A stretch of DNA of 25,162 nucleotides from a virus. Below the pieces are notes generated by a model, which did no database searches, was not told the origin of the DNA, and saw only the letters and a list, made by a program, of their open reading frames with translations. Where the stretch lies: the IMG/VR virus record IMGVR_UViG_3300031565_003193, positions 1 to 25,162 of that record. One strand, written 5' to 3'. Numbering within the stretch: position 1 is the stretch's first letter; each line of letters starts with the position of its first letter. Of the stretch, positions 4,048 to 25,162 are shown in pieces. The translations under genes were made by a program, and so were the position numbers.

Positions 4048-4983
4048 TCAGTGGTAGGCGCGAGCAACAGCGCTCTCGCTTGGGTTCTTGGCGTGGAAGT
4101 CTTCGACGGCTTGCAGCACGGCGGGCGCGCATACGTTGCCGCCCTCCAGCAAGCCGATGGCTTCGACGGTGCGTTGACCTTCGATATGCCGAATCCCCTT
4201 TTCGAGATTCATGTAGGACATGGTGGAGAGGATCTCAGACTTGCTGAGTTTGGCACCACCACCGCGACCGGCTTCGCCGGGCATCGACTTGTGCAGCGCT
4301 GCTGCGCCGGTCACGCCGCGCGGCGCGTTGGGGGTGCGCTCCACAAGGTTCAGACGCGTCCCAAGCGCCTGCACCACAGCAGCGTTGCTCTTCAGCAGAC
4401 TGCCCATTTGGTGCAACGCGCCTGCGAGTGCGCGGTTGACCGTCGCCTGCGAGCCGAAGCCCTTGCGCAACGAACCGTTCACCTTGTCGATCTGATCCGC
4501 AGTGCGCGCGGTGAACGATTCAAGGTATGCGCTGACGTCGATGGTATCCGCCAAGTCGGAGTCCGATCGGTACTCGTCCATCGACTTGCGCAGCGTGCGC
4601 TCCGACGCGGACTTCTTGGCCTTGCCGCGCATGCGACCACGCATGCCGCCCGACATTTCGCCGTCGCCGTCGTTGTCGTCGTCTTCGCCCTCTTCGTCGC
4701 CGTCAGGCTCTTCGTGATCCGCGAAGCCCAGCAGGCCGTCATTCATGGCACTGATCTGACTCGCGCTGAATCCGAGATCAGCGAGCTTGCCGATCATCAG
4801 GCGATCCAGAGCAACGTCACCCGGATACGAGCCGCGACCGCCGCCCTTCTTGCCGTCTTCATCAGTCGTACCAGAGTGCTCCACGCCGTTGCTGTCGCCC
4901 TTGATCAAGTCCACTGCGTCAGCAGCCTTGATCAGATCCTCAAGCGCAGAGTTCAAACCGTCCACGGTCACGTCGTTGTTCAT
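4048..4983 (-). CDS. Scaffold-like capsid assembly protein (311 aa)
   Basis: The start is the ATG at 4981-4983, preceded by GAAAGG. The frame is open further upstream but that part overlaps the protease gene. The protein has an N-terminal helix (about 1-28), a Gly/Lys linker, an extremely acidic run at about 90-109 (mostly Asp and Glu), then a basic Arg/Lys/Met-rich run at about 115-127. A long helical region follows (about 130-225), and a second helical C-terminal domain. Charge-segregated, helix-rich proteins lying between the prohead protease and the major capsid protein are typically internal scaffolds that the protease removes, which is how I read it. No catalytic motif is visible. The assignment rests on position and composition, not on a recognised family signature. 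Confidence 0.65.
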   Translation of the reverse strand: MNNDVTVDGLNSALEDLIKAADAVDLIKGDSNGVEHSGTTDEDGKKGGGRGSYPGDVALDRLMIGKLADLGFSASQISAMNDGLLGFADHEEPDGDEEGEDDDNDGDGEMSGGMRGRMRGKAKKSASERTLRKSMDEYRSDSDLADTIDVSAYLESFTARTADQIDKVNGSLRKGFGSQATVNRALAGALHQMGSLLKSNAAVVQALGTRLNLVERTPNAPRGVTGAAALHKSMPGEAGRGGGAKLSKSEILSTMSYMNLEKGIRHIEGQRTVEAIGLLEGGNVCAPAVLQAVEDFHAKNPSESAVARAYH

Positions 4984-4996
4984 CAGGTTTACCTTT

Positions 4997-5734
4997 CTAC
5001 AGTTCAGTCGCGGGGTAATGTTTCGCTGCATATCCGACCACGCGTTCTGCGAGTCGTACGGAAAGTTTCGGGTGGACCATGCGGAGAAAATGCACGGCTG
5101 CGCTCTTGCGCATTTTGCGCTGCTTGCGCTTCTTGGGCATGCGCGGCCCAGCGTTCGCAATGCCCTCCAGCGCCTCTGGCTCCAGCGCCGCTGCGCTGCC
5201 TGCCTCGCCACTGGGCGTGCCTACCGACAGGCTCTTCGCCAGCACGTCCAGCGACGTCTGCGTGTTGACCGGGCAACGCGTGATTGCGACTTCGCGGACC
5301 ACTGCCTTGCGAACCTTGCTCGGGTCGCGTGGGTCACGCTCGATAATGCCGCCCTCTACCGAGAAGCCGAGTCGACGCCCACTGCCGCCCTTCGCCAGAC
5401 CCTCTGCAATGCCCCACAGCTTGTCGGCCCGTGGGTTGCTACCTTCCGGCAGTAGCTCGCCCTCTACGTACCAGCCCGCGTGCCCGTCCGCGAGTGTGTC
5501 GAGTCGCGCCGCAGTCGGATACCCGACAAGCGAGTCAGAATCGCCAGAGTGATTGTCGTTGAACCAACCCTTTGCGAGAAAGTGACTGAAGTCCAAACCC
5601 TTTTGGATCAGTGTCTCGCCTTGGCGATCCATGTGATCGGTCGAAACGTATCCGCCGATGAAACGGCCAGACCGTCCATCGATCTTGGACTTCGACAGCG
5701 CGTCACACTCAATCTCGAAAGCGAAGTTGGGCAT
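4997..5734 (-). CDS. Prohead maturation protease, serine (HK97/U35-type) (245 aa)
   Basis: This is a caudoviral prohead protease that trims scaffold and capsid during head maturation. The sequence shows the family pattern: an N-terminal strand (IDGRSGRFIGGYVSTDHMDRQGE), a catalytic-type histidine at 62 in FNDNHSGD, a serine at 125 in GFSVEG, and the late strand VVREVAITRCPVN (about 146-157). The basic tail (MPKKRKQRKMRK) is probably removed or binds scaffold. I chose ATG 5732-5734 because the protein then begins MPNFAFEIEC as family members do, and because the upstream in-frame ATG at 5815 overlaps the -10 box of a predicted promoter and would force translation through a strong hairpin. No Shine-Dalgarno precedes this ATG; it comes directly after the hairpin's U-rich tail. 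Scaffold and capsid genes follow. Confidence 0.85.
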   Translation of the reverse strand: MPNFAFEIECDALSKSKIDGRSGRFIGGYVSTDHMDRQGETLIQKGLDFSHFLAKGWFNDNHSGDSDSLVGYPTAARLDTLADGHAGWYVEGELLPEGSNPRADKLWGIAEGLAKGGSGRRLGFSVEGGIIERDPRDPSKVRKAVVREVAITRCPVNTQTSLDVLAKSLSVGTPSGEAGSAAALEPEALEGIANAGPRMPKKRKQRKMRKSAAVHFLRMVHPKLSVRLAERVVGYAAKHYPATEL

Positions 5735-5780
5735 AAAATCAAAAAGGGACACGCCTGCACTAGCGGTGCAAGCATGTCCC
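5735..5780 (-). terminator. Rho-independent-terminator-like hairpin in the leader of the capsid operon
   Basis: On the minus strand, bases 5780 to 5766 pair with 5760 to 5746 as a 15-base-pair stem with two G-U wobbles and a five-base loop (5761-5765). TTTTTGATTTT follows immediately, then the protease ATG. The opposite strand lacks a T run after the hairpin, so it is directional. It looks like an intrinsic terminator and would either end transcripts from the accessory genes or attenuate transcripts from the promoter at 5814-5843. Confidence 0.75.
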
Positions 5781-5813
5781 TCTCTCTGCAACGCAGAACG
5801 GACCAGCAACGCC

Positions 5814-5843
5814 ATAATGGAACGGCGAACCGCGCACTGTCAA
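5814..5843 (-). promoter_or_regulatory. Sigma-70-type promoter with palindromic operator-like -35 region
   Basis: The minus strand carries TTGACA, a perfect -35 hexamer (5843-5838), an 18-base spacer, and CATTAT (5819-5814), four of six matches to TATAAT. The -35 box is the exact centre of a perfect inverted repeat with seven-base arms (5831-5837 and 5844-5850, CGCGCAC/GTGCGCG), as expected for a repressor or activator site. It lies in a 140-base non-coding gap (5735-5874), the largest in the window. It points at the protease-scaffold-capsid genes and would start transcription near 5807, about 27 bases before the terminator-like hairpin. Promoter use is predicted, not shown. Confidence 0.6.
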
Positions 5844-6092: not shown

Positions 6093-6386
6093 TCAGACTT
6101 CAGGCAACACGACACCCAGCACTTGCCCGTAGTGCATCACGTCGTGCGGCATGGGCACGTCGTGCGTGATGCACGCGCGTATCGTGCACAGCCACATGCG
6201 CTTGATCTCTGCTTGGCTGTGCTTCTTAACCAGTTCGATCTGATTCACGCCGTCAGTCAGAAACTCCAACGCCTTGCGCGCAACGTGCGCGTTGGGCTGA
6301 TCGCAGAAATATCCGACGTCCAGCTTCGTGCCGGGCTCCATGTAGTTCGTGCCCAGCGCGTCCAAAACATCCGTCGTCCTGCTCAT
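6093..6386 (-). CDS. Unidentified small protein (97 aa)
   Basis: The ATG overlaps the stop of the giant helicase gene by four bases (ATGA), and the next gene starts two bases after this one stops, so it is translationally coupled on both sides. The protein is soluble and mixed alpha/beta, with a helical middle (NAHVARKALEFLTDGVNQIELVKKHSQAEIKRMWLC) and a histidine/methionine-rich end (ACITHDVPMPHDVMHYG). It has three cysteines, not paired as a zinc site. I do not recognise a family. Tight coupling to the giant protein suggests a partner or chaperone, but nothing in the sequence proves this. Confidence 0.6.
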   Translation of the reverse strand: MSRTTDVLDALGTNYMEPGTKLDVGYFCDQPNAHVARKALEFLTDGVNQIELVKKHSQAEIKRMWLCTIRACITHDVPMPHDVMHYGQVLGVVLPEV

Positions 6387-9300
6387 CGCATCCCTCCAAC
6401 GTGAACCACGAACCGCCTCGCGTATCGCGCCGACTTGGCAACCAGTTCTTGCGCGTAGTGCACCGATTCATCCAGCATGCGATCCGCAAGCGGATCATCG
6501 TTTTTATTCAGCGTGGACGTTGTGCGTGCGCTGGCAACGCTCGCAGCCACGAAGTCATAATCCGTTGTCTCGGGCTGCGCGTTCTGCGCGATGTTCAGGA
6601 ACGCTTCGACGGCAGTCATTTTCGCACGGCTCTGCATCAGTTGCGAACGCTCTGCATTGCACGGCGATTCCATACTGTACTCGCCCGTCTGCACGGTCAC
6701 TTTCTTGCCCTTCTTTTTGCCTGCCACCGGGATCGTGATCTCTTCTGTAATGGGGATATCGACTGAGGTAGTGAAGCGCTTCACTTCAACCAAGAAGCGG
6801 CGGTCCTGCATCATCTTTCGCTCAAACGGCGAGAGGTGCTGCTGAATGATAGTGTTCACCACGTCGCTCTGTTGCACCGCTTCAGGTGGGATATACATGC
6901 GTTTGAGTTGCTGAAGGATGCGATTCCTAGTGGCACCATCGCCCGCCGCAGCAATCGCTTTCAAGCGTTCGCGCTCTTCCGGGTCGCCCCAGTAGCCGTG
7001 CGCTTTCAGATCAGCAAGCGTCGACTCTTGCAGACCCTGTATCCGCTCAAGTGAGCGCTTCGCAAAGTACGCCTCGATCAGTTGGTCCGGTGCGCCTTCG
7101 CCAAGTTCATCTAACTTCTTGCGGTCGCCTGGGTCCAACGTGTCGAGTGCATCGTTGATCGCGGCAAGCGCCGTCGTGTGATCGTAGTCCTTGATCGACG
7201 CGCCTTTTTTCTCTTCGTTGGCGCGAATGATTGCGTCGATCTTGTCTACGATCGGCTTGGCTTCACGCGACGTCGCAGCGGGCAACATGCGCGCGGCGCG
7301 CGTGATGCGCTGCCACTCATCTAGCGGCGAGAAAAGAGAGTCGTACATCGCCAAGTGCGCAGCGGGCCAATTCAAACCTACGTTCGCTGCATCCGACGCG
7401 CACATGAATTGCGTGTTGTTGAACACGTACTGCTGTTTATCCGACAGCGGCACAGTAGCCACCCAATACGGCTTCAGCAGACCGCGCAGTTCCGATTCAT
7501 GGCCTTTCATCGTCGTGCCGCTAGAGGTGCGGATAAGGCGCTCCAAGTCCTTCACACGTTTGCTAGTCTTCGCATCCAACGCGCTTTCGTAAACGTAGTT
7601 GGGCACCACAGTACCCTTCGGGCCAGCAACGCCCATAACACGCATGGGCACCTCCAACTCAAACGACTCTTTTTTACCCTTCGCCTTGTCGTGCTTGAGA
7701 TCCAACACAACGTCCGTGCGGAACGCTGCCGCAATGTTCTTGCGTTCGCTGCGGCCCCACCCCTCGGCAATGACACCAAGTCCAGGCGGCTTGCCGGTGG
7801 TGCCGTACAGCGTGCGGTGCACGAACATGCTCACGCCAGTGTCCTTGCCGAACTTGTCCTGCTTGTGCCGGAAGATTTCGCTGTTCAGGTTGCGCTCACC
7901 CAGCGTCGCGCCCTTGCCCATGTACGTCACAAAGTATTTTTTCGGCGTTTGCTTGCGGTCGCCTTCGCCGGATACGTCCGCGTTGCCCAGCGCTTCGTTG
8001 ACGTCTTGGAAACCCATTTGCCGCAGCTTGGCTTCCATCGTGCGCATGGATGAACCAATGCGGTTGCCGAACAGAATGAACTGCGTGTCGTTGCCGCCAG
8101 CGCCCGTGTGCTTCGCCAAGTTGTTCTTGATCCAACCTTCCAACGCATCCGTCTTCGCGTTGTTATGCGTGACCACTGCGTCGTACTGCGCTCGCTCGTG
8201 CCTACGCTCAAGACCACGTTGGATCGTGTGCTTTTCGTGACCGACCTTGGGTGCTTGATTACGAACGCCCTTGCCCTCATCCCACAGCTTAGGCTTCTTG
8301 CGTTCCTCGCCAGTATCCGGGTTCCAAATCCTGTCGTTGTCTTCCGGGTGCTCAGTCCAACCGGCAGCCTTCAATTGCTTGACTGTTTTCTTGTCGTCGC
8401 TGTCGCCAACGTCTTCGCCCTCTTCGCCAGACGTGTCCATGCGCCCGGTGTGATCCCAGTCAGACGACGCATAGAACATGCCCTTGGCTTTGGCTGTCGA
8501 GTCGCGCACGAACAGCGTGCCGTTGGGAACAACGCCAATGTGTTCGTGCCCATGCTCGTCTGTGAACTTGTATGGGATCGGTTCGATCACGCCGCCAGTT
8601 TCCGCCTGCGTGCCGCGCGCGATCATGCCCTCGGGACCGTAGTCCTGATTCAGAACCTTATCCGTCCACTTCTGCCCAGTCACTGTGGTGTACGTGCGCT
8701 CCTTGATCTGCTTCAGAATCGTTGGGTCGATCTTCGTGCCTGCAAGTGTCGAGTAGTCTACGCCAAACAAACGCTCAGAGTATTTTTGCAGCGCCTCAAA
8801 ATATCCGCCGTGGATTTTCTCGTCAGCCACGTCCTGAATAGACGGCCACTTGCCGTTCCACCCAGTTTTCTTGTCCATGATTTCTTCATAGCTGGGCAAC
8901 TTGAATGTGCGCGGCACTGTGGTGATCGTCACCTCACCGCGCTTATTCGTGAGCGCAACGGACGCGTCGTATTGCAATTCCTCGCTTGCGTCTGGGGCTT
9001 TGTACGCCGCGCAGTTCGCGATGCCACGCGCGCGTGCAACAGACGCCTTCGCCTCTTCGCTCAGTAGCTCTGTTTCATCCAACCCAAGGCTCGCGCTCGA
9101 TTCAAGCGAGGTGCGATCCTCGTCTGACATTTGCGCCATCGCAGCGCGGTACATCACCGCCTGCATGCCGGTCATGTGCGCGGGCTGGTTTTCGTCCAGC
9201 AACACCGCTGGCATGTTCTGGCCTTTGACGTCCGTGGTGTTTTTCACGTCGAAGTATTGAAACAGATAGCGTGCCAGCTTGCCCGCACGCATCGGATTCA

Positions 9301-12300
9301 AATCCAACTTGCGCGGATTCTTCACGCCCAACGCACGCTGCGTTGCACTCGCGACCAGATACTCGTTTTCAAACTGATCTTCGGTGCCGAGATCAACAGC
9401 GCCCGCCGTGATCAGACGCAGCAAGCGAGGCACCGTGTGCAGCGTGTTATTGACCGGCGTGCCTGTCATAGCCAGGAACAGCTTCATGTGCGGGTTCCAC
9501 CGCTCGACAGCTTTAGATACTTCGTTGTCGTTGGCGATCTTGTGCGCTTCGTCAACCACCATGCCGTCGAACAGACCAGTCGCGAGCAACGCTTCAGAGT
9601 GATCTCTGAAATACTCGTACGGGCAAACCAGTTCGTTGTTTGTGTCGTTGAACGGATCCCACATACCAGGACGCTTCTCTATTTGATCCTTCCAATGCTG
9701 AATCACTTTCTTGCGGAACGCCTCGTCAGTGTCCTTTGCACCGCGCGGCGGCAGCTTGGGTAGCTGCTGTGCGCCTGCAAGCGTCGCTGCGCCTGCAAGC
9801 GTAGGAACGTATCCGGCCCGTTGCTTGAATTCTTGAAACCAGTTCTCGGCAGTGTTCAGCGGCACTACAATGACCGTTTTCTTCGACGTGCGGTTGGGGT
9901 GCGGTGCTCCGTTGCCGTCCACCAAGTTGCGCATCATTGCGGACGCCATGATCGCAAGACCCGTCTTGCCTGTACCCATGAAGTGCGCAGCCATCATGCG
10001 CCCGCCGTTGTTTGCCAGTTTCTGCAAGGCTGTTATCCGGTGCTCGCCCGGCTGGAACCCGTCGTCGTCTGCGCGCATGCCGCGCAGCAGCCCGTCTGGG
10101 TTGATGTTGCCGTTAGGCTGGATGAAGTCCTCCGTCTTCGCGATGTTCTTGCGCCCGACTTGCTCGGACACACTGCGTTCAGCGACCATCGCGATATCGA
10201 GCATCGCCCGCACGCGATCCTCCATCATAAATCCGCCAAGTGCTTTTCGCAGTGCCGGTAGGTCGGATATGTTGATCCCGATCGGCGCGTCGTCTGCGTC
10301 CTGATCAGGATCGAGCGCGGGCTCGTACACGCCCTCCATTTGGAGGATGCGGTCACGCGTCATAGATCCGTCTTTAGGCAGCTTGATCCTGATTACGCCC
10401 GACCCTTCCTCGATAGCCGACCCTGTGACCACTTCGTCTGCGTACAGAAGTACGTGGCTCTGCAACGGCTCCACAAACCTACGCCGCACGTCCTTTTTGC
10501 CAGTCGCCGGAATGATGCCAGCTTCGCGCGGCGTCACTGCGTCAACGCGCAGCAGCACTTGTTTGATGCCCGCGCCTTGCCCTGCTTCGGGCATCACAGT
10601 CCAACCGTCCTTCGCTCGCTTGATCACGCGAGCAAGTATCCGCTTGTCGCTGCCGGGGTAAAGAATCCACCCGATCACACCGGGTTTGATCGGCACTTTC
10701 TTTTTTGCTTCGCCGCGACGATCGATCACACGCGGCAAACGGATCTCGTTATTCGCGTCGAGCAGTTCGTCAATGCGGATACTGGACTTGCCCAGTTGCC
10801 TTGCCCAGTAGTCGCCAACGACTTTCGGCGGTCCCTTGCCGTCCCACTCGACTTCGATATGCGCCAGACCGCGTTCCGCGCCTTGCTCTGCCTTGCCTGA
10901 AATAGACACCCATGTGCGGCGGGGCTCAGTGGCTTCTGCCGCCTTGCGCATCAGGTCAATCAAGTCGCCTGCGTTTTGAATGTCTACGCGCCCGCCTGGA
11001 TTCAGCAGCGACGCCAACACAGGGTCCATGATCTGCCCACGCCCGTAGCGATGGTTCTCGGCAAGGATCGACGCGCCAGTGCAGCCGCCGATCTGCTTCG
11101 CCAACTTGTGCGGGTCAGTCGGCATATCCTCCGTCAACACGGTCCAACGCCAGTTGCCGTTGCCATCCGGCAACTTAATTTTGTCGCCAGTCGCAAACGC
11201 GTTCGACGCGTTCACCCAAATTTTGGTCCACGTTCCATCAGGGTTGCGTTGCTCGTACAACTTCGCCGTCAGCACGGGCTCATGCTTCCCCGTGACCGGA
11301 TCATAGAACGTCTGCGCCATGCTCTTGCCGTCGACAGTCTCGCGCGCCTGCATCGTCTGTCGTTCAGGCGGCGCTAGTCGGATACCGTTGAATTTGAACG
11401 TGCCCGACTTCGCCATAAACTCTTCGGGCGAAATTTCGACAGGCGTCCATTCGTGGCGCTCTTGGATCGCATCCTCGCCCTTCGCGTGCAGCTTCGCCAC
11501 GCGTCTGCGCTCAAACTCTAACGTGCCTGGTATCTTCGCGCGCCCTTCCGGCGTGAGGTGCAAGCCAGCAGCCATTTGCTCATCAGTCGCGTTGCCGAGA
11601 TTGCCGCCTAGCGCATTGAAAATCTTGCGCCCAAGGTTCGTTTTTCCGCCCTCCCAGAGTTTGCCTTTTTTGTCGTACAGCTTCGTGTACGCAGCAATCG
11701 GATCGTCGCCCAACTCCGCGACGAACTTCTCGATCTTCGCGTCGCCCTGTCCGAGAAACAGAGTCGCCTGATCGGAGTCCAGCAGGTTGCCTTTTTCGTC
11801 GTAGATTTCCTTCATGTACTCGCGCGATCGAAACTTATTGAAGAGGCTGCCCTCGTAACGAGGCAACTGCGTCACTGGGTCGATCGTCGCGGGCATGCGG
11901 TCCCAGCCAGCCTCTTCGTCCTTGCTGGCAGGCCCAACACGCATCATCACCGTGCGACCGTTGACGGTCATTGTGTAGAACTGATCTTTGTCGCTGTAGT
12001 ATTGGCCCGCTGTAGATGCAGGTGATTCGTGCCTCGCACGATGCAGCAGCTTCGACACGGGCGTGACGGGCGCAGCGTTCCACCAGCGCAACTCTTCGTC
12101 CGGTGTCGCCAGCATTTCGGCCAACGGGCGCAACTCATGCAGCACGTTCTCGCGCATCCACTCGTAATGCTCGGGCGCGACCATCGCAAGTTCCTTCGGG
12201 TGCGTGTGCGCGCACGCAAAGGTTTCTGCGAAGTCCTCTTCGTATTTACTGTCTGGGCCACTTCTGGGATTGCCGACTTGCGCGTAGTTCGACACGAACT

Positions 12301-13417
12301 TCTGTTCCGTATCCCGCATGCGTTTCCAGTCGTCCCACAGACCAGGCTGCTGAATCTCTATGATGAAATGCCGCGCATGACCGATTTCGTGGAGCACAAC
12401 CTTTTCGGTGCGAGTCAGCGACCCATTGAAATTCGGATCCCCGATCGGCACTGTGACAATGTTCTGCCCTACTTGGATCTCGCCGGTATTTGGACGGTAG
12501 AACGCAGCAGCCCCGTATTTTTCCAGATACTTTTCCGGGTCGTCACCGTCTCCGACCATCCAAAACTTCGTGACGCCATGCGCCTTGTTTCCCCAAGAAC
12601 GAGTAGTGGCACCCCCTGCTGACTCGCCGTGGTCTTCGCCGTCCTGATCCGCTTCGGCTCGCGCCAACACCGCTTCAGCGCGCTTCAGCGCAGCGGTTTG
12701 CGATGCCACTGATTCTTCTGCGGCACTCAAGGCACGCGCGATATCGTTGTTTTCGTCGGCGGTCCTGTCGCCAGCCGCGTTGAACGATTCTTTAGCCGTA
12801 TCTAACGCTTTCTTCGCAGCCTCCAGCGCAGCTTTGAAGTCCGTCACCTTTGCTTGCGCGCGTGCCACAGCAGCCGCCAACGCGACTTCTTCAACGGCTG
12901 TGCGCTTGCCTTTTTTCTTCTTGCCGCCTTTCCCCAAACCCACGATGCGCCGGGTTTCCTCCGACATGAGATTCACGGCGGCGAGGATGCGCGCGTTGGG
13001 CGAACGCGTGCCTTCGCCAGACGCTTTCTCGGATTCGATGAAGGGCGCGACGTTTGCCTTGTTCCACGCGTCGCCAACGATCACGTTCCCCTTCAGAGTC
13101 TCGCCGCCGAACGCCTCTGAGATTGCGGTTGCCGTCGCCTCCGCAGCAGTAATGTTCTTAGACTTCAGGTGCGGATATAGCTTCACCAGATCAGCGATGA
13201 GGTGGTGGACGTGCTTCGCGTCTGGGTCGATCGAATCTTTATGCGCCTCGCGTTTCAGATCATCGGCGTACCAATAGATCCACACCAGCTTGCCGCCGAC
13301 CATCGAACGCTCACGACGGATATACTTGTGCGCCGCAGCAGGCGTGCCTGTGCTGCGCGAGAATGCCTTCAACAGCGAACCGCCGTAAGCGCGTGTCAGT
13401 GGGATTACGAAGCGCAT
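6383..13417 (-). CDS. Giant polyvalent virion-type protein: zincin peptidase plus SNF2/DarB-like helicase (2344 aa)
   Basis: I chose ATG 13415-13417, not the longer in-frame start at 13474, because it follows the upstream stop as TGATCATG with GAAAGG in front. Order (this numbering): HKY..GGK..YWYADD motif near 29-52; helical coiled-coil region (about 170-260, KKKKGKR followed by Ala/Glu helices); zinc-peptidase motif HEIGH at 343-347 with EDFAETFA at about 394-401, the arrangement of lethal-factor-like (ATLF) gluzincins; several linker domains; then a superfamily 2 helicase with Walker A GTGKT at 1148-1152, DEAH at 1289-1292, TGTP at 1318-1321, and the second RecA-like lobe with NVGLNW (2012-2017) and QRITRAAR (2036-2043), separated by a very long insertion. 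P1 DarB and the phage polyvalent proteins share this logic: they travel in the capsid and protect incoming DNA. Injection is inferred from the family and from the head-gene neighbourhood. Confidence 0.8.
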   Translation of the reverse strand: MRFVIPLTRAYGGSLLKAFSRSTGTPAAAHKYIRRERSMVGGKLVWIYWYADDLKREAHKDSIDPDAKHVHHLIADLVKLYPHLKSKNITAAEATATAISEAFGGETLKGNVIVGDAWNKANVAPFIESEKASGEGTRSPNARILAAVNLMSEETRRIVGLGKGGKKKKGKRTAVEEVALAAAVARAQAKVTDFKAALEAAKKALDTAKESFNAAGDRTADENNDIARALSAAEESVASQTAALKRAEAVLARAEADQDGEDHGESAGGATTRSWGNKAHGVTKFWMVGDGDDPEKYLEKYGAAAFYRPNTGEIQVGQNIVTVPIGDPNFNGSLTRTEKVVLHEIGHARHFIIEIQQPGLWDDWKRMRDTEQKFVSNYAQVGNPRSGPDSKYEEDFAETFACAHTHPKELAMVAPEHYEWMRENVLHELRPLAEMLATPDEELRWWNAAPVTPVSKLLHRARHESPASTAGQYYSDKDQFYTMTVNGRTVMMRVGPASKDEEAGWDRMPATIDPVTQLPRYEGSLFNKFRSREYMKEIYDEKGNLLDSDQATLFLGQGDAKIEKFVAELGDDPIAAYTKLYDKKGKLWEGGKTNLGRKIFNALGGNLGNATDEQMAAGLHLTPEGRAKIPGTLEFERRRVAKLHAKGEDAIQERHEWTPVEISPEEFMAKSGTFKFNGIRLAPPERQTMQARETVDGKSMAQTFYDPVTGKHEPVLTAKLYEQRNPDGTWTKIWVNASNAFATGDKIKLPDGNGNWRWTVLTEDMPTDPHKLAKQIGGCTGASILAENHRYGRGQIMDPVLASLLNPGGRVDIQNAGDLIDLMRKAAEATEPRRTWVSISGKAEQGAERGLAHIEVEWDGKGPPKVVGDYWARQLGKSSIRIDELLDANNEIRLPRVIDRRGEAKKKVPIKPGVIGWILYPGSDKRILARVIKRAKDGWTVMPEAGQGAGIKQVLLRVDAVTPREAGIIPATGKKDVRRRFVEPLQSHVLLYADEVVTGSAIEEGSGVIRIKLPKDGSMTRDRILQMEGVYEPALDPDQDADDAPIGINISDLPALRKALGGFMMEDRVRAMLDIAMVAERSVSEQVGRKNIAKTEDFIQPNGNINPDGLLRGMRADDDGFQPGEHRITALQKLANNGGRMMAAHFMGTGKTGLAIMASAMMRNLVDGNGAPHPNRTSKKTVIVVPLNTAENWFQEFKQRAGYVPTLAGAATLAGAQQLPKLPPRGAKDTDEAFRKKVIQHWKDQIEKRPGMWDPFNDTNNELVCPYEYFRDHSEALLATGLFDGMVVDEAHKIANDNEVSKAVERWNPHMKLFLAMTGTPVNNTLHTVPRLLRLITAGAVDLGTEDQFENEYLVASATQRALGVKNPRKLDLNPMRAGKLARYLFQYFDVKNTTDVKGQNMPAVLLDENQPAHMTGMQAVMYRAAMAQMSDEDRTSLESSASLGLDETELLSEEAKASVARARGIANCAAYKAPDASEELQYDASVALTNKRGEVTITTVPRTFKLPSYEEIMDKKTGWNGKWPSIQDVADEKIHGGYFEALQKYSERLFGVDYSTLAGTKIDPTILKQIKERTYTTVTGQKWTDKVLNQDYGPEGMIARGTQAETGGVIEPIPYKFTDEHGHEHIGVVPNGTLFVRDSTAKAKGMFYASSDWDHTGRMDTSGEEGEDVGDSDDKKTVKQLKAAGWTEHPEDNDRIWNPDTGEERKKPKLWDEGKGVRNQAPKVGHEKHTIQRGLERRHERAQYDAVVTHNNAKTDALEGWIKNNLAKHTGAGGNDTQFILFGNRIGSSMRTMEAKLRQMGFQDVNEALGNADVSGEGDRKQTPKKYFVTYMGKGATLGERNLNSEIFRHKQDKFGKDTGVSMFVHRTLYGTTGKPPGLGVIAEGWGRSERKNIAAAFRTDVVLDLKHDKAKGKKESFELEVPMRVMGVAGPKGTVVPNYVYESALDAKTSKRVKDLERLIRTSSGTTMKGHESELRGLLKPYWVATVPLSDKQQYVFNNTQFMCASDAANVGLNWPAAHLAMYDSLFSPLDEWQRITRAARMLPAATSREAKPIVDKIDAIIRANEEKKGASIKDYDHTTALAAINDALDTLDPGDRKKLDELGEGAPDQLIEAYFAKRSLERIQGLQESTLADLKAHGYWGDPEERERLKAIAAAGDGATRNRILQQLKRMYIPPEAVQQSDVVNTIIQQHLSPFERKMMQDRRFLVEVKRFTTSVDIPITEEITIPVAGKKKGKKVTVQTGEYSMESPCNAERSQLMQSRAKMTAVEAFLNIAQNAQPETTDYDFVAASVASARTTSTLNKNDDPLADRMLDESVHYAQELVAKSARYARRFVVHVGGMR

Positions 13418-13754: not shown

Positions 13755-16700
13755 TCAGAGCCCCATGAGTTTAAGCACGTCCGAACGTGCCTCGGTTGGT
13801 GCAAGCGCCAGTGCATCGTCACTGCCCCACATGACTTGCGACAAGCGTGGGAACTTCTCAATTAGGTCGAGCACGTACATATCGGGAGCGACCATATCAG
13901 TTCCCGCATCACTCTTGAAGGTAGACCCAACAGCATTGCGCAAGTCGCGTGTGGTGCGCACGTTCACCAAGCGGTTCCTGCCAGTGTGCAGATCGGTCAT
14001 AATCATTTGCATCGGAGCGTACCTGCCTTGCGCGCCTGTCACGTCTGTGACAACGCCGGTTGCGTTAGCGAACCACTCACGCGAACGCGGTTGCTGCATC
14101 ACGCGCTCTTCTGCAATGTGCCGCGCAGCTTCGCGTCGACCGATCTGCGACACGCGCCGCCACTGCTCACGCGCATACTCGGCCTTGTGTGTATCCGACC
14201 CGGCGCGGTCGAGCAGCGTGCGGAACCGCATGCGCTCGCGTGCACGCCACTCGCGCACGTCCGCAGTCGTGACCTTGCGGCTGTCCGCTTCGATTCGTTG
14301 ACGCACAGTCAGTCCACCGCGCACAACTTCCATTGGGATACGAAGCCGGTCCTGCGCACGCGACACCGTAGTCTCTGCTTCTTCGCGCCCACGCAGTGCA
14401 GTGCGCACAATACCCAGCGCCTCTTCGGTAGCGTGGTCCAGCACGTCGTATGCGGCGCGTGAACTGAGTTTGCGAAGCTCGCCATCCGACCCAAGGCGGT
14501 GCACTTCCAGATCCTCTGCAATCGCGCGCGTCGACTGTGGATCGGTGCCAAGGCCAAGCCGCCGTCGCAGTAGCTCTGCGCCATCCAAGCGGTACTCCAT
14601 GCGTCCGATCGCGACGTGCATCTTTTGGACGCTGTGCAACGCAAACTCGATATCGTGCCGCACTTGGATCCTGTCGTGCTCGCTCATACCAACGCCAACG
14701 CCCGCACCGGGCAATACATCGGCGGTGCCGCCGAACCAATCCGACCCAGTGCTCTTGCGCTGCCCGTCGATAAACTCGGCAAGCTCGCGCGCCAACTCAA
14801 TCTTGCCGGGGTAGTCCTTGCCCGACACGATCTCGCCAGCCTTCAGGCTGTAGCGGTGCAACGGAATATCATCGTCTCTGCCCGTCTGTAGCCCGTCGTG
14901 CATATCGCGTTTCTTCACGTTCCACACGCGAGCGATTGCATCCTCGGATACGTCGCCGCCACCGCCCTCGCGGTTCGCTGCGCCGCGCGCAGCAAGAAAG
15001 CCAGGCAGCATGCGTGTGACTCGTTTCGGCAAACTCACGCCTCCCGCAAACTCCCGCGCGCCATGCAATCGAGCGTACTGGCTTCCAACGGTGATGATCG
15101 CAGCGCGCAAACTATATCCGCCAGTGTAATCGTCAATCGCATGCAGCGCGCCCTCCATCGCCGCCGACTGCATGTCCTCGCGCGATTCATTCGTCAGGCG
15201 CACGCCCACCTTCGCAGCCGCTCGCTTGGCGACGCTCTTGATCGTGCTGCCCAACTCCGACAGCAGCCGCACCTTGTCGGCGTCTGGCATCGCCAGCACC
15301 TCGTCTTCGACAGCGTGCGACACGCCGTCTGCGTCAGCGCGGTACAGCACGCGCAGCTTGCGCGGGTATGCGCCGTTCTCGGCACCGTGCAGCACCGTGC
15401 CGGGCTTCGCCGTGCTGCCTTCGTATACCGGCGTCTTCTCGCCAGCGCCGCCCCTCCAGCCGGTCGTACGCTTGCTGCCGCCGCCAACCGTAATGTCAGG
15501 CCCACGCACACCAGGCGCAGCCTTCTTTGGCATGCCGTGCTCGACTGGGTAAATGCGGTCGTGCTTCACCAGCACGGGATCGATGTTGGCGGGCGCGTTC
15601 ACGTCGCGCAGCGACGCCCACCCGGCGTCTGCATCGGGATCGACAATCTCGTACAGCTTCGCAGGCTGGCCCGCGATCTTTACCGGATGCTTCGACTTCG
15701 GATCGATGCCGCCGCGCGTCCAAGGATCGATCGTAATGCCGCCGCCCTCACGCCGCACGTAGTCCCAGTACGCAGGCGTCTTGTCGTACCGACCCGCCAC
15801 GAAGTCGGCTTCAGTCAGCACAGCAGCTTCGTGCACAGCATCATGCGCCGCACTTGGACTGCGCCCCATGTCGGGATACCAGTAGTCCCAGCCGTCAGCA
15901 GTCTGCTTGTGGTAGCCGCCTTTCTTGCTGCCAGGGATCGGGAAGAATCCAGCAGGCACATGCGCTGTCGCGGACTTGCGCAGAATGGTGAGCCTCGGAA
16001 AGCGCATATCCGACTTCGCGACCTTGCCAAACACATGCGCCAACATCGTCAACGCGTTGATGCTCTGTTGCTGTTCGTCACGTTCGTCCGTGTGCCGCGC
16101 CGCAGACATAGCAGCAGAGATCAACTTGATCGGCATAGACACGAGTCTGTTCGCTGCTAACGACACAGCGTCTGCATGTATCTCTTGACGGATATCTTCG
16201 GCAGACGGCGGATCCTTCATGCCCTTCATTTCGCGAGCGACAAACTCCGCGCACACGTCGATCATGCGATCGACCTTTTCTTGCGGAGGGTTTTTGCCAA
16301 GCGCGTCCTTAAGCTCGTACAGCCCGACACCCACGGTGTAATCAGTGCCGTAGACAGTCTTGCCTGTGCTGTCGTGCCCAACAGACGCATGCCTTGTTTT
16401 CAGCCCAACGCTAGCTGCCAGCGGAGCCGCCACTTCTTCATAGTTGGAATCGGGACCGTACTCGACCGCAGCACGCTCTATCTTCGCAGGCACTGGTAGC
16501 GATGCCTTCGCCGCGCTCGCTTGCACAGCAGGCTTCGCAGCAGGTCCGTCCGCAGCTTTTATTTTGGCGACCATCGCATGCGCGTACGCACGCGCAGCCT
16601 CCAGCGTCTTATGCTGGATTGTACCGCCGACCGTGAATCCAAGATCCGTGTCGTGCAGCATCGAGCTATATCCGCGCGGCCCGTTGTCGAAAATCCGAAC

Positions 16701-17180
16701 CTCAGAGTCTTCTGTCGCTCGGATAACCTCGATAGGCTTTGCGCGCGGCGGTTCCTTCGCCCACTCGGGAACAGGCTTCGCAGTGGGCTTCGCCGCACTC
16801 GCATGAACAGCAGGCTTACGCTCATCCTCTGGTACAAACGTCCCAGCAGAATTAGCCCTGTGCCAACCCGCGCCCCACTCATCATAGAGCGCGATGAAGG
16901 CTTTCGTATTGCCCTTGTACTCGCTCACCAACTCGTTTTGAAAAGTAGCGTCTTGCCGCGCTATCGCCATTTTACCGGCGTTGAACGCAGCCTCGCCTAG
17001 TTGGCGTGCGCGTTGCGCGTGCTCTGCCGATATAGCAGGCGTCTTCTTCGCCGCGTGCACGTCGTCTGCGTACTCGTAAATGTATCCGCCCTTGCCGTCC
17101 GCGCGGCGCGACTTGTACTTGTGCCCCGCGCGCATGCCGCCGCGTGCTTTGATCAGATCGCGTGTTTGGTAGATCGCCAT
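13755..17180 (-). CDS. Large multidomain phage protein with sigma-70-like regions 2, 3 and 4 (1141 aa)
   Basis: An N-terminal HKY..GGYIYEYADD motif (about 20-40) is followed by Ala/Pro/Lys-rich linkers and small folded segments. A second copy of the motif (KKGGYHKQTADGWDYWYPD) lies at about 419-437. Residues about 664-725 (ESREDMQSAAMEGALHAIDD through QYARLHGA to SLPKRVTRML) match the pattern of sigma-70 region 2. Residues about 743-765 (VSEDAIARVWNVKKRDMHDGL) resemble the region 3 helix-turn-helix. Residues about 864-917 (RLDGAELLRRRLGLG, then TRAIAEDLEV, then LSSRAAYDVLDHA) match the region 4 helix-turn-helix. The C-terminal 200 residues are helical then mixed. The likely role is an RNA-polymerase-binding or promoter-binding module inside a capsid-cargo protein. 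The alternative is a non-transcriptional DNA-binding role. The gene follows an 82-base gap full of inverted repeats. Confidence 0.7.
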   Translation of the reverse strand: MAIYQTRDLIKARGGMRAGHKYKSRRADGKGGYIYEYADDVHAAKKTPAISAEHAQRARQLGEAAFNAGKMAIARQDATFQNELVSEYKGNTKAFIALYDEWGAGWHRANSAGTFVPEDERKPAVHASAAKPTAKPVPEWAKEPPRAKPIEVIRATEDSEVRIFDNGPRGYSSMLHDTDLGFTVGGTIQHKTLEAARAYAHAMVAKIKAADGPAAKPAVQASAAKASLPVPAKIERAAVEYGPDSNYEEVAAPLAASVGLKTRHASVGHDSTGKTVYGTDYTVGVGLYELKDALGKNPPQEKVDRMIDVCAEFVAREMKGMKDPPSAEDIRQEIHADAVSLAANRLVSMPIKLISAAMSAARHTDERDEQQQSINALTMLAHVFGKVAKSDMRFPRLTILRKSATAHVPAGFFPIPGSKKGGYHKQTADGWDYWYPDMGRSPSAAHDAVHEAAVLTEADFVAGRYDKTPAYWDYVRREGGGITIDPWTRGGIDPKSKHPVKIAGQPAKLYEIVDPDADAGWASLRDVNAPANIDPVLVKHDRIYPVEHGMPKKAAPGVRGPDITVGGGSKRTTGWRGGAGEKTPVYEGSTAKPGTVLHGAENGAYPRKLRVLYRADADGVSHAVEDEVLAMPDADKVRLLSELGSTIKSVAKRAAAKVGVRLTNESREDMQSAAMEGALHAIDDYTGGYSLRAAIITVGSQYARLHGAREFAGGVSLPKRVTRMLPGFLAARGAANREGGGGDVSEDAIARVWNVKKRDMHDGLQTGRDDDIPLHRYSLKAGEIVSGKDYPGKIELARELAEFIDGQRKSTGSDWFGGTADVLPGAGVGVGMSEHDRIQVRHDIEFALHSVQKMHVAIGRMEYRLDGAELLRRRLGLGTDPQSTRAIAEDLEVHRLGSDGELRKLSSRAAYDVLDHATEEALGIVRTALRGREEAETTVSRAQDRLRIPMEVVRGGLTVRQRIEADSRKVTTADVREWRARERMRFRTLLDRAGSDTHKAEYAREQWRRVSQIGRREAARHIAEERVMQQPRSREWFANATGVVTDVTGAQGRYAPMQMIMTDLHTGRNRLVNVRTTRDLRNAVGSTFKSDAGTDMVAPDMYVLDLIEKFPRLSQVMWGSDDALALAPTEARSDVLKLMGL

Positions 17181-22200: not shown

Positions 22201-24282
22201 TCACAGTTTCGCGTGGTCGCGCCGCACCGCGTCCGCTTTGTCTCGCGCTTGTTTGAACGGCTCGCCGGGACGTATGGGGCGATCGTTGCGTGGTCGGAAT
22301 ATCTCTCTGTACGCGTCGTGCAGCATCGCGAACGCGAACGGGTGCTTTGTCATTAGCCGCATGCGGTCGTAGAGATACAGCCGCGTTAGCTCCGCTGCGT
22401 TCTCGATCGGGTTGGTGCTCGCGTACTTCGTGCAAAAGCCTTCGCCCCTGCTCTTCGCGTACAGCTTCGCTTGCCATGCGCGCACGGGTTCGACGCCGCC
22501 CAGTCGGTACATGAGCCACACGTTCAGGCTGTGCCCCAGTTCGTGACGCACAACGGCTTCGACGCGATCAAGCGGTATCGTGATCGCGAGCCTGATCTCG
22601 TTGCCAGTCCAGTAGCCCAAGTCGTGATCGTCCAACGCGTTGCCCACGCGCGGTTGATCCTCGCAGATCAGAGTCACGCCTACGCGCTTGTCGAATATCG
22701 CTTTCGGCGTCTCTGCAATCACACGGTCGATGATCGCTTTCTTGCGCGGGTCGCCTATGTGCACTGCGCAGCCTGTATCCGGTGACGTGCCTGCAAACGT
22801 CAGCAGCACACCACCGGCTTTGCGCAAGTCGCCGGGAAGCAGCGCGGCTCGCAGCATGCCAAGCGGCACAATGTCGCCGTCGTCATTCAGCCCCCAGCCG
22901 TGCGGTATGTGGATCAGTTCGCAGCTACACCACGGGTGCACTGGCCCGATCACAGGCTTCCACGAAGCGCGACGCACGCCCACGTTCGTACCGTTCGCCG
23001 TCAACGCGGATAACGGAAACACGCGCGGCTTGCTACCAGGCCCAGCCGTTAGATGCAGGCGCACGCAATCATCGCACGCACGCGGTGACGGCAACTTGTA
23101 GACCATGATCTGTTTTGGGTCGCCTTCGCGTGACACCAGCCCAGCGCTGATCCCAGCCTGCGATGCAGACTGCGTTTCGGTTGCTGCGATGCGCCCAAAG
23201 TCGCGCGACCAATCTTTTGTTTTGTGGCCCAGCTTGCTTGCTACTTCGCGCCACGCGTCACGCCTCGCAATGCTGTCGACAACCTCATCACGGATATCTT
23301 GCTCGTACGCGGCTTGCAGTGCTGCGTCAGCTTCAATCGCAATCGTACTGAAGTCGTCTGCAATGCGGTTGCCCAGCCCGACAATCTCATTCGCTGCGTG
23401 ATGCTCTGCCCATGCACGCGCCGCCTCTTGCTGCGCCGTCAGCGGGAACGATGCTGCCACTTCGTGCGTCACGCGCACACTAAACGGACCCGTATCCGGT
23501 TCGTCTTCGCCGGGCATGCCTAGCACACCGGGCATTGCGTTGCCTGCATGCGCTGGGATCGGGTGCCGGTGTTCGTGCACGGTGAACGGGTCGGCTGTCG
23601 TGTCTGCCGCCACGGGTTGCCTGCGTAGCGTGCGCCGCACCGCAGCCGCCGCTACGCCCGCTGCGCCGATGCCAGCCGCCACTACGCCCACCCCCAGCGC
23701 TGCCAGCCCCTGTGCAGCCGGTAGCGTCAACGTCTTGGCCCTTGCTCGCAACAGCGGGTCACGGCCCAGCAGCACCCCGTAGTTGTAGGCGTCCGCAATC
23801 ACGCGTGCCGCCTCGCTCGCAGTCTCGCCATGCTGCGCCACAAACGAGTAAGCGAGATCGCGCGGTAGCACTCCCTTGTCGATCAAGCGTTGCACCGTCT
23901 CCGCACTCACCACACCAGGCCCGATCATCGTGGCGATAAATGCCAAGTGCGCATCACCGATCAGAGTGCGTATGTGCTCCATGTGCTCTGGTGGGATCAA
24001 CGGCTTCGTCGCCGGATGTTCGTCAACGGCTTTGCGCAGCGTGTCTATGGCGTGGTGCTCTGCATGCGCGCGGATACGGTTCACAAGCATATCCAAGTGT
24101 CTCTGGTACGCCACCGTGAGCACTTCGCAGTTTTGCTCCATCGCCAAGTAGTGTCGGAACGTGCGTGCTGCGCCTCGCAGCGGCTCCGCTTTCAGCAGTA
24201 CGTGTTCGCCCACGATGGCTTGCGCCACGTCCAACGGATGCATGTCTGCCGGTGCTGTGTACGAGACTCGCGGCTTCACCAT
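22201..24282 (-). CDS. Minor head protein (Mu F/SPP1 gp7 type) fused to an ATLF-like zinc peptidase domain (693 aa)
   Basis: Helical N-terminal half (about 1-180), then a Gly/Ala-rich hydrophobic stretch (188-216) able to form a membrane-active helix, then helical linkers. Residues about 355-460 carry the head-morphogenesis signature: DWSRDFGRIAATETQSASQAG, then C403-D-D-C406 and H449-P-W-C452-S-C454, the cysteine/histidine set of Mu F-like and SPP1 gp7-like minor head proteins, which act with the portal and can enter the cell. The last 190 residues hold a metallopeptidase motif HELGH (580-584) with YASTNPIENAAELT (about 620-633), the HExxH plus distal Glu layout of lethal-factor-like gluzincins. 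The ATG overlaps the methyltransferase stop. It could cleave a host target after injection or act in head maturation. Fusion to a peptidase is uncommon as far as I know. Confidence 0.8.
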   Translation of the reverse strand: MVKPRVSYTAPADMHPLDVAQAIVGEHVLLKAEPLRGAARTFRHYLAMEQNCEVLTVAYQRHLDMLVNRIRAHAEHHAIDTLRKAVDEHPATKPLIPPEHMEHIRTLIGDAHLAFIATMIGPGVVSAETVQRLIDKGVLPRDLAYSFVAQHGETASEAARVIADAYNYGVLLGRDPLLRARAKTLTLPAAQGLAALGVGVVAAGIGAAGVAAAAVRRTLRRQPVAADTTADPFTVHEHRHPIPAHAGNAMPGVLGMPGEDEPDTGPFSVRVTHEVAASFPLTAQQEAARAWAEHHAANEIVGLGNRIADDFSTIAIEADAALQAAYEQDIRDEVVDSIARRDAWREVASKLGHKTKDWSRDFGRIAATETQSASQAGISAGLVSREGDPKQIMVYKLPSPRACDDCVRLHLTAGPGSKPRVFPLSALTANGTNVGVRRASWKPVIGPVHPWCSCELIHIPHGWGLNDDGDIVPLGMLRAALLPGDLRKAGGVLLTFAGTSPDTGCAVHIGDPRKKAIIDRVIAETPKAIFDKRVGVTLICEDQPRVGNALDDHDLGYWTGNEIRLAITIPLDRVEAVVRHELGHSLNVWLMYRLGGVEPVRAWQAKLYAKSRGEGFCTKYASTNPIENAAELTRLYLYDRMRLMTKHPFAFAMLHDAYREIFRPRNDRPIRPGEPFKQARDKADAVRRDHAKL

Positions 24283-25162
24283 AGCGACCCCTGCTCTGGG
24301 TTTGGTGGTGCCTTCCCGCGCTTGACAGATACGGTTGGCGCTTCGCCCGCTTCCGCGTTGTCGAACAGCGGCGCGTGCCCGGCGATGCGAGCGCGAGCGA
24401 TCTCTACATATCCCGCGTCACGATCAATGCCGATGAAGTTGCAGCCCTCTAGGCGCGCAGCCCAGCCGGTCGTGCCCGAACCCATGAACGGGTCAAGGCA
24501 CACGCCGCCCTTGCGCGTCACGAGTTTCACTAAGTACCTCATTAGGGCAAGCGGCTTCACTGTCGGATGGTGGTTCGCGCGTTGCTGCGCGCCACGGTTG
24601 CGCGGGTTGTCGCCGCCTGGATCGCCGTCGTTGCGCGTCTCGTCACGCTTGCGCTGCGCCATGCCGTCGAGTCCGCTCTCGCGTTCGGCGCGGCTGGACT
24701 TCGCTGTGTAGAAGAAGCGCGCGGCGCTGCCGGAGTCGCATTGCCCTTGAGTGTTGCCGCCACTAACCCCAAAAATACCAGCGCCTTTACCATTGCCCTT
24801 GCTTTCGCGCCAGTTGCTCGTAGTCGTCGGAAACGCCGCGAGCACTTCGGGGCTGCCGTCGTGGATGAGGTTGGCGGGCCAGCGGCCGAGCGTTTCGGCC
24901 TTGGCGACGTTGCCACGGACGCGCTCGGCATGCGCGGCCCTTGCCCCGTCGTCATGCTTCCACGGCCGATCCCACCCCTCATGGTTTGTAGAACAAACCG
25001 TGTCGGCCTGTTCTGCTCCTCCCCCCAGCTTGTCTCCAGTCCCAACGCGACACCCGTCAATGTTGATTGCACCTGTGCCGTGCTCTAACACGTTGGCGGC
25101 GACGGTGCCGATCAGCGGCTTGCGCGCCATCGTGATCGGTTCAAGCGCGGGCTTTAGCGCCG
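24276..25162 (-). CDS. DNA N6-adenine/N4-cytosine methyltransferase, beta class (5' end cut by right edge)
   Basis: The frame is open through the right edge. The ATG at 25130 is internal, since the family-typical ALKPALEPITMARKPL spans it. Visible: KPL..GTVAANVLEHGTGAINIDGCR, the middle target-recognition region, RFFYTAKSSRAERESGL, HHPTVKPLALMRYLVKLV, then the AdoMet-binding motif I DPFMGSGTTGWAARLEG followed by NFIGIDRD and YVEIARARI. Motif I comes late, and the catalytic DPPY motif should lie beyond the window, which is the order of beta-class enzymes. Phage solitary methyltransferases of this kind protect phage DNA from restriction or mark it for packaging or regulation. No restriction endonuclease gene is seen here. 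The stop overlaps the minor-head start. Confidence 0.88.
   Translation of the reverse strand, partial: ALKPALEPITMARKPLIGTVAANVLEHGTGAINIDGCRVGTGDKLGGGAEQADTVCSTNHEGWDRPWKHDDGARAAHAERVRGNVAKAETLGRWPANLIHDGSPEVLAAFPTTTSNWRESKGNGKGAGIFGVSGGNTQGQCDSGSAARFFYTAKSSRAERESGLDGMAQRKRDETRNDGDPGGDNPRNRGAQQRANHHPTVKPLALMRYLVKLVTRKGGVCLDPFMGSGTTGWAARLEGCNFIGIDRDAGYVEIARARIAGHAPLFDNAEAGEAPTVSVKRGKAPPNPEQGSLW

What the first reader, a model, noticed from the sequence alone, without database searches (positions are those of the whole stretch)
22201..24282. Minor head protein fused to a second zinc peptidase
The Mu F/SPP1 gp7-type head domain (cysteine/histidine set at 403-454) continues into an HELGH domain whose distal Y..TN..EN.AE pattern resembles the one in the giant protein. 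Two separate ATLF-like peptidases in one head region suggest an injected proteolytic attack on host defence or regulatory proteins, or self-processing during head assembly. The Gly/Ala-rich hydrophobic stretch at 188-216 could help membrane passage.
Basis: partly seen in the sequence, partly recalled or inferred. Interest (0 to 1): 0.65.

Follow-up and report, generated by a model that had tools for sequence, protein, structure and literature searches.

The report
Phage head protein carrying releasable protease
A virus of bacteria builds a small zinc protease, shaped like a known toxin protease, onto one of its head proteins behind what looks like a cutting site for the virus's own head-assembly protease, so the enzyme could be freed inside the particle and delivered with the DNA.

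Summary
Window 22201-24282 (minus) encodes 693 aa: a Mu F/SPP1 gp7-like minor head domain followed by a zinc peptidase domain. HExxH, a Tyr and a Glu seven residues later are kept in every relative that reaches them. The predicted fold matches the M34 group (lethal factor Z 12.0; PPEP-1 Z 10.2). The giant neighbour's zincin is related. The Gly/Ala stretch is a window-only insertion, so membrane passage is not supported.

This motif crowds the SPO1-type scaffold and head protease and sits at the capsid-protein N-terminus. It matches the mature N-terminus of the related phage 812 capsid protein in PDB 9row (after V-V-K). It is nearly absent inside the folded MuF and zincin domains. More distant MuF proteins carry other enzymes (pyrophosphatase-like, C39 peptidase) behind such sites; short MuF proteins lack them.

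Best reading: the head protease, not self-cleavage, frees the zincin inside the capsid as injectable cargo. The release site is strongly inferred; injection and target are inference. MuF-metallopeptidase fusions are published, so this is a new variant.

The parts
22201..24282 (-). MuF-zincin gene, 693 aa
   Evidence: 34 distinct relatives
24190..24282 (-). predicted N-terminal propeptide, residues 1-31, ending L-L-K31|A32
   Evidence: N-terminal LxK[ASG] in 32 of 35; the other three are contig-truncated
24028..24039 (-). second N-terminal LxK site, L-R-K84|A85
23635..23721 (-). Gly/Ala hydrophobic stretch 188-216, inside a window-specific insertion
22873..23430 (-). MuF/SPP1 gp7-like minor head core, residues 285-470, with Cys/His set 403-454
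22816..22827 (-). linker processing site L-R-K488|A489 between head domain and zincin
   Evidence: 34 of 35 strict, 35 of 35 with F/V/M at P3 allowed
22204..22818 (-). predicted released M34-like zincin, residues 489-693 (205 aa)
22531..22545 (-). HELGH, residues 580-584
22390..22425 (-). Y620 ... E627 ... E631 (Tyr-x6-Glu spacing of M34)
4997..5815 (-). SPO1-type head maturation protease, the proposed releasing enzyme; carries 5 LxK[ASG]
   Evidence: phrog_1028 E 7e-51; 42% to SPO1 gp3.2 over residues 26-218
4048..4983 (-). scaffold protein with 8 LxK[ASG] sites (longer ORF 4048-5211; start placed at the internal ATG)
2597..4006 (-). major capsid protein, leader site L-R-K30|A31 at 3914-3925
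   Evidence: (11 of 11 at this column)
6383..13417 (-). giant SNF2 protein with the second zincin (HEIGH 12377-12391) and N-terminal leader ending L-L-K|A (13364-13375)
13755..17180 (-). second giant protein (1141 aa), leader L-I-K|A at 17145-17156 and L-R-K|S at 15972-15983

Best explanation
The protein is a minor head protein that carries a protease as detachable cargo. (1) The MuF part joins the procapsid near the portal, so the C-terminal M34-like zincin sits inside the shell (inferred from SPP1 gp7/MuF biology and gene order). (2) During maturation the SPO1-type head protease cuts after Lys at L-x-K|[ASG]: at K31 and/or K84, shedding a propeptide, and at K488, freeing a 205-residue zincin (strong sequence inference; not shown biochemically here). 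(3) The freed zincin leaves with the DNA and (4) cleaves host proteins early in infection, most likely for counter-defence or takeover (inference; substrate unknown). The giant SNF2/zincin protein and its neighbour begin with short leaders ending in the same motif, like T4-type capsid-targeting sequences, so they are probably loaded and trimmed by the same route. My step estimates: zincin of M34 type 0.92; release by the head protease 0.75; injected effector 0.6.
For: Zincin: model confidence about 90-97 over most of residues 501-660; VIA-align 2 rows are lethal factor (4pku Z 12.0, rmsd 3.4, 154 aligned) and PPEP-1 (5a0x_A Z 10.2, rmsd 3.0, 141 aligned), against Z 7.0 for 3khi. Zinc and catalytic residues kept in every relative that reaches them. 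Motif enrichment after collapsing similar sequences: scaffold 45 observed vs 4.8 expected, protease 22 vs 3.2, MuF-zincin 78 vs 24.3, MCP 7 vs 3.2; phrog_772-like protein 0 vs 1.5, gene 1760 0 vs 0.6, gene 2143 3 vs 1.8. Placement in MuF-zincin proteins: N-terminal 1-110, 44 sites in 2669 residues; linker, 27 in 930; MuF core, 1 in 5032; zincin, 2 in 4550. Anchor: PDB 9row_B equals residues 25-463 of the phage 812 MCP, i.e. starts right after E-D-V-V-K24. MCP N-terminal site in 11 of 11. Cassettes: an extra ParB-like piece lies between two LxK sites in 4 of 35, and two others have the motif as a tandem L-R-K-A-L-R-K-A there. Slot with other enzymes behind LxK in 6 of 6 long non-intein MuF proteins lacking the zincin, using [LIVMF] at P3 (4 after pairing near-identical contigs); strict motif in 0 of 20 short ones.
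Against: No cleavage, virion or activity data. The model draws a low-confidence helix (478-490, pLDDT about 60) over the linker site, so it is not plainly unstructured, and DLRKA could be a structural element. The giants are not enriched overall (4 observed vs 4.74 expected; 2 vs 1.84); only the N-terminal placement is striking. In the MCP set other patterns reach similar ratios (LxR 10 vs 4.8, LxD 10 vs 4.7, LxK before other residues 28 vs 7.9), so only the conserved site counts there. Relatives share ancestry, so shuffles overstate significance. In L018/L015 an AstE-like domain follows the zincin with no LxK[ASG] that I could see between them. 9row_B shows the deposited chain sequence; I did not see its paper. 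SPO1's own MCP is deposited full length (9vel_C), which says nothing on cleavage.
Confidence: 0.62

Rival explanations
1. Self-processing: the zincin cuts itself, the MuF protein or the giants, as Iyer et al. 2017 propose for MPTase domains of polyvalent proteins.
For: Published proposal for the wider class (PMC5512222, passages); zincin intact and always in cis.
Against: The linker site has the same form as sites in scaffold, protease and MCP of phages whose MuF is short and lacks a zincin (Goe26, LysYB1, and the sites in SPO1). Giant L025 has no HExxH yet keeps the leader L-V-K|A. MuF proteins with non-zincin cargo have LxK sites too.
Confidence: 0.15
2. Structural or assembly role: the zincin stays attached and acts in head assembly (trimming scaffold or portal) or only as a fold.
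For: Domain as conserved as the MuF core (mean pairwise identity 0.598 vs 0.593), unlike a fast-swapping toxin.
Against: Head modules of SPO1-type phages work without it, and 20 short MuF relatives lack it; the linker motif is a predicted cut site.
Confidence: 0.13
3. MuF polymorphic toxin in the sense of Jamet et al. 2017: a toxin of temperate phages used against competitors or to steer lysogeny.
For: Same MuF + C-terminal enzyme plan; 20% of their 191 MuF toxins had a metallopeptidase domain (PMC5576092, passages).
Against: They report MuF toxins as restricted to temperate phages (passages). No tyrosine integrase or resolvase in 10 of 10 relatives' records, none known to be complete, three above 100 kb. 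No immunity gene was looked for.
Confidence: 0.1

Closest known systems
MuF polymorphic toxins (Jamet et al. 2017, PMC5576092)
   Same: MuF head domain with a C-terminal enzyme, metallopeptidases among them; proposed delivery with the DNA.
   Different: Here an SPO1-type head module in apparently non-integrating phages, a zincin kept across the clade rather than swapped, and a conserved LxK site between the parts.
Phage polyvalent proteins with MPTase domains (Iyer et al. 2017, PMC5512222)
   Same: SNF2 + zincin giant next to virion genes; zincin compared with lethal factor in that paper too.
   Different: The paper gives processing to the MPTase; here the site pattern points to the head protease.
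Peptidase family M34 (lethal factor, PPEP-1/2/3)
   Same: Fold, HExxH, Tyr and Glu seven residues on.
   Different: 14-20% identity in structural alignments; no significant sequence match (best 6fpc E 0.04); phage head context.
T4 internal-protein propeptides and the P1 DarB capsid-targeting sequence
   Same: Short N-terminal leader on capsid cargo; in T4 it is cut by the head protease.
   Different: Cut pattern would be LxK rather than LxE; here it also lies between head domain and cargo. T4 consensus recalled; P1 from passages.
SPO1 / Herelleviridae head module
   Same: Protease 42%, MCP 32-33% identical; LxK[ASG] sites in portal, protease, scaffold.
   Different: Goe26 and LysYB1 MuF proteins end after the head domain (286 aa).

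Membership tests
MuF / SPP1 gp7 minor head protein | Profile match | tested here: inconclusive
   PF04233 E 0.014, 16.6 bits against a 29.6 cut-off; phrog_115 minor head protein E 0.058; TIGR01641 phageSPP1_gp7 in 1 of 27 at 0.021
MuF / SPP1 gp7 minor head protein | Conserved Cys/His set of the head domain | tested here: met
   C403, C406, H449, C452, C454 in 35 of 35
MuF / SPP1 gp7 minor head protein | Gene between portal and protease/scaffold/capsid genes | tested here: met
   L020: portal E 1.7e-24, one 262-aa ORF, MuF-zincin, protease, scaffold, MCP; the window itself is cut off before any portal
Peptidase family M34 | HExxH plus Tyr and Glu seven residues apart | tested here: met
   lethal factor and PPEP-1 spacing recalled, PPEP-1 E143/Y178 seen in PDB titles
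Peptidase family M34 | M34 zincin fold | tested here: met
   Z 12.0 to 4pku, Z 10.2 to 5a0x_A, well above 7.0 for 3khi. Foldseek E-values alone are weak (best 0.022)
Peptidase family M34 | Significant sequence similarity | tested here: inconclusive
   6fpc E 0.04; Pfam hits only below cut-off, Peptidase_Mx1 in 6 of 7
Peptidase family M34 | Zn-dependent proteolysis | not testable with these tools
   needs purified protein
MuF polymorphic toxin | MuF domain with C-terminal enzyme domain of 100 aa or more | tested here: met
   residues 489-693
MuF polymorphic toxin | Carried by a temperate phage | tested here: inconclusive
   PF00589 and PF00239 in 0 of 10 records, all possibly fragments
MuF polymorphic toxin | Small immunity ORF downstream | not tested
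   no immunity search was made
SPO1-type head protease substrate | Site matching the [LIV]-x-K|[SAG] pattern of a mature capsid protein | tested here: met
   pattern from 9row_B; sites in 34 of 35 linkers strict
SPO1-type head protease substrate | Observed cleavage | not testable with these tools
   needs virions or purified protease

The most novel reading that the evidence does not exclude
The head maturation protease of SPO1-type phages doubles as a polyprotein processor for injected effectors. L-x-K|[ASG] is its release code. The MuF minor head protein has a cargo slot behind such a site, into which phages plug zincins, pyrophosphatase-like domains, C39 peptidase, ParB-like and other enzymes, each bounded by its own cut sites; free giants are loaded with short leaders ending in the same code. 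If so, injected proteins can be found from sequence alone by the code.
Probability: 0.55. Interest if true: 0.75.

Novelty: new variant of a known kind. Interest (0 to 1): 0.6.

Why it matters
It gives a way for a phage to hang an enzyme on a structural protein for packaging and still deliver it free, without the enzyme having to cut itself out. If the L-x-K|[ASG] code is right, propeptides, scaffolds and injected cargo of SPO1-type heads, including the therapeutic staphylococcal and listerial phages, become readable from sequence, and the question of who processes polyvalent proteins becomes directly testable.

Tried and rejected
Membrane-passage role of the Gly/Ala stretch: rejected, window-specific. 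Swapping toxin tip: not supported for the zincin clade, where the zincin is as conserved as the MuF core, although the slot does vary among more distant MuF proteins. Chance HExxH: rejected. Close relatives among named phages: zincin-only tblastn gave nothing significant (best E 4) and the giant gave no match; full-length matches are to the MuF part only (12 records). Pfam, PHROGs, NCBIfam and PDB sequence searches did not name the zincin; Foldseek on the two models had no match at E 0.001 or below, so the fold call rests on the consistency and Z of the M34 rows. The giant-zincin model is poor (pLDDT 65.7, five sequences), so its Z 8.1 is weak support. Literature on the cut code: ten searches listed no paper stating LxK for SPO1-type proteases; most older papers are not held, and two look-ups failed, so I do not claim it is unpublished. 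Selection of rows: one search kept 80 of 116 relatives; one search used 27 sequences, one search used 7; the set has near-identical rows, collapsed to 25. For the domain-boundary count in four multi-domain MuF proteins I computed by hand the domain fractions fed into (0-1 sites inside domains, 6.4 expected); it is descriptive only.

Full report
What is there. The window is a linear 25,162-base IMG/VR virus record. All main genes run on the minus strand: a DNA methylase (24276-25160), the MuF-zincin gene (22201-24282), several small genes, an amidase (18147-18857), two giant proteins (13755-17180 and 6383-13417), a head maturation protease (4997-5815), a scaffold (4048-4983), the major capsid protein (2597-4006) and a protein like phrog_772, which PHROGs labels tail fiber (158-1249). 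The protease and capsid protein are SPO1-like: 42% identity to SPO1 gp3.2 over residues 26-218, and 32-33% identity of the capsid protein to SBSphiC, Goe26 and SPO1.

The observation. The 693-aa protein is as described. Pfam's Phage_Mu_F is seen only below its cut-off (E 0.014), but tblastn links residues 261-471 to proteins of SPO1-like phages (32-35%), and the Cys/His set is invariant in 35 of 35 sequences. Relatives with both domains are common in viral contigs: 24 loci with the whole alignment and 36 with the zincin alignment (overlapping sets), giving 35 distinct ORFs including the window. One further member lies on a contig of a gammaproteobacterial MAG (L003).

The zincin. H580, E581 and H584 are kept in 35 of 35; Y620 in 34 of 34 and E627 in 32 of 32 that reach the column. 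The full-length model, built on 27 sequences, is confident over most of residues 501-660. Structure comparison gives lethal factor entries (4pku Z 12.0, rmsd 3.4, 154 residues) and PPEP-1 (5a0x_A Z 10.2, rmsd 3.0, 141 residues) well ahead of 3khi (Z 7.0). Foldseek alone is weak (best E 0.022), and so is the sequence match to PPEP-2 (E 0.04). I file the domain as M34-like. The giant protein's zincin aligns to it (94.5%); its own poor model again returns lethal factor and PPEP rows. Of the giant's relatives, L012, L017, L018 and L035 keep HExxH, L025 has none, and L028 is cut short by its contig end.

The linker. Columns 485-489 read D-L-R-K-A. A site of the form [LI]-x-K-[ASG] lies between the two domains in 34 of 35, and the last (L050) has F-E-K-S. 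It persists although the linker varies from 32 to 204 residues. In L040, L046, L051 and L052 a ParB-like piece (phrog_1033 E 4e-4 for L040) is inserted between two such sites; in L042 and L043 the motif stands there as a tandem repeat L-R-K-A-L-R-K-A, and L019 has L-R-K-S twice.

Why this looks like the head protease's site. In the window, LxK[ASG] occurs 8 times in the scaffold (0.64 expected), 5 in the protease (0.58), 4 in MuF-zincin (0.89), 2 in the capsid protein (0.60) and once in 16 other ORFs tested apart from the two giants; the giants show no overall excess (4 vs 4.74 and 2 vs 1.84). Over relatives, collapsed for similarity: scaffold 45 vs 4.8, protease 22 vs 3.2, MuF-zincin 78 vs 24.3, against 0 vs 1.5, 0 vs 0.6 and 3 vs 1.8 in three other families; the same pattern with R, E or D for K is not raised in scaffold (0 vs 3.9, 6 vs 6.6, 2 vs 6.9). 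Some control patterns do rise in single families (for instance LK[ASG] 9 vs 1.2 in the phrog_772-like set, and LxR and LxD about twofold in MCP), as expected when few related sequences are counted. The capsid protein has one aligned site, in its N-terminal leader, in 11 of 11. The experimental anchor is phage 812: its capsid precursor reads E-D-V-V-K24-S25, and PDB 9row_B (3 entries, 48 chains) is exactly residues 25-463. SPO1, Goe26 and LysYB1 portal, protease or scaffold proteins carry many such sites, whereas the MuF proteins of Goe26 and LysYB1 are 286 aa, without the motif and without a zincin. The motif is therefore older than, and independent of, the zincin.

Placement. In the MuF-zincin family the sites are almost confined to boundaries: 44 in the N-terminal 110 residues (2669 residues counted), 27 in the linker (930), 4 in 111-284 (2362), 1 in the MuF core (5032) and 2 in the zincin (4550). 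The model puts a low-confidence helix over the linker site, which is a caveat.

A cargo slot. A scan with the MuF core found 116 relatives, 80 kept, giving 52 distinct MuF ORFs: 24 with the zincin and 28 without. Of the 28, one is truncated, one holds an intein, 20 are short (strict motif after the MuF core in 0 of 20), and 6 (four after pairing near-identical contigs) carry long extensions, all with an [LIVMF]xK[ASG] site within 40 residues after the MuF core. The extensions are InPase (L110, L124, L132; L123 matches L124), C39 peptidase + PAPS reductase + InPase + Mom-like (L127; L130 matches it), and S-AdoMet lyase in L110. L028 has a C-terminal extension after the zincin that looked ADP-ribosyltransferase-like to my eye, but neither Pfam nor PHROGs named it.

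Leaders on the giants. Window P0002, L007/L012, L017, L018, L025, L028 and L035 all have LxK[AS] shortly after the likely start, and most begin M-x-(F/Y/H)-V-(I/V)-(P/D). A pattern written from these found 7 of 2086 ORFs, against 1 in reversed and 0 in shuffled controls; since the pattern came from these proteins, only the extra hit (L053) is new. The window's start at 13417 has GAAAGG upstream. This resembles capsid-targeting leaders of T4 (recalled) and P1 DarB (PMC9024508, passages).

Mechanism and status. Shown by sequence or comparison: zincin type, linker motif and its distribution, capsid-protein anchor, variable cargo behind the motif. Inferred: cutting by the head protease, release, ejection, host target. 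SPN3US offers a precedent for prohead proteases trimming many head proteins at a short motif (PMC10052503, passages).

Against the known. MuF proteins with metallopeptidase tips are published (20% of 191 MuF toxins, PMC5576092, passages), and so are lethal-factor-like MPTases in polyvalent proteins (PMC5512222, passages). The fusion itself is thus a known kind. New here are the SPO1-type setting, no sign of integrase or resolvase in 10 of 10 partial records, and the evidence that the head protease separates head domain and cargo.

Noticed in passing
L003 3267-6371 and 4620-5516; L033 4209-5969: Inteins inserted in the MuF domain directly before the Cys of H-P-W-C (L003) and H-P-H-C (L033). L003 has a REase-like (MTES_1575/DUF559) plus HTH nuclease ORF on the antisense strand inside the intein; its tblastn relative in L033 (31%, E 5e-13) is also antisense within that intein.
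   Followed up: partly
L111 7536-9500: Another MuF intein, with a MTES_1575/DUF559 nuclease match in the sense frame.
   Followed up: no
L035 5888-8059: Portal protein with a weak intein-splicing match (E 5e-4).
   Followed up: no
L127 1594-8334: 2247-aa MuF polyprotein with C39 peptidase, PAPS reductase, InPase and Mom-like DNA modification matches, LxK sites lying between them.
   Followed up: partly
L110 7451-11395: MuF protein with InPase and an S-AdoMet lyase family match, a possible anti-restriction enzyme.
   Followed up: no
L018 2-2437, L015 4298-6745: AstE/AspA catalytic domain (a second kind of zinc enzyme) in the same ORF after the zincin (for L018; L015 has the same sequence there).
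   Followed up: no
window 24276-25160: N6/N4 DNA methylase directly upstream of the MuF-zincin gene, overlapping its start; L030 also has a methylase there.
   Followed up: no
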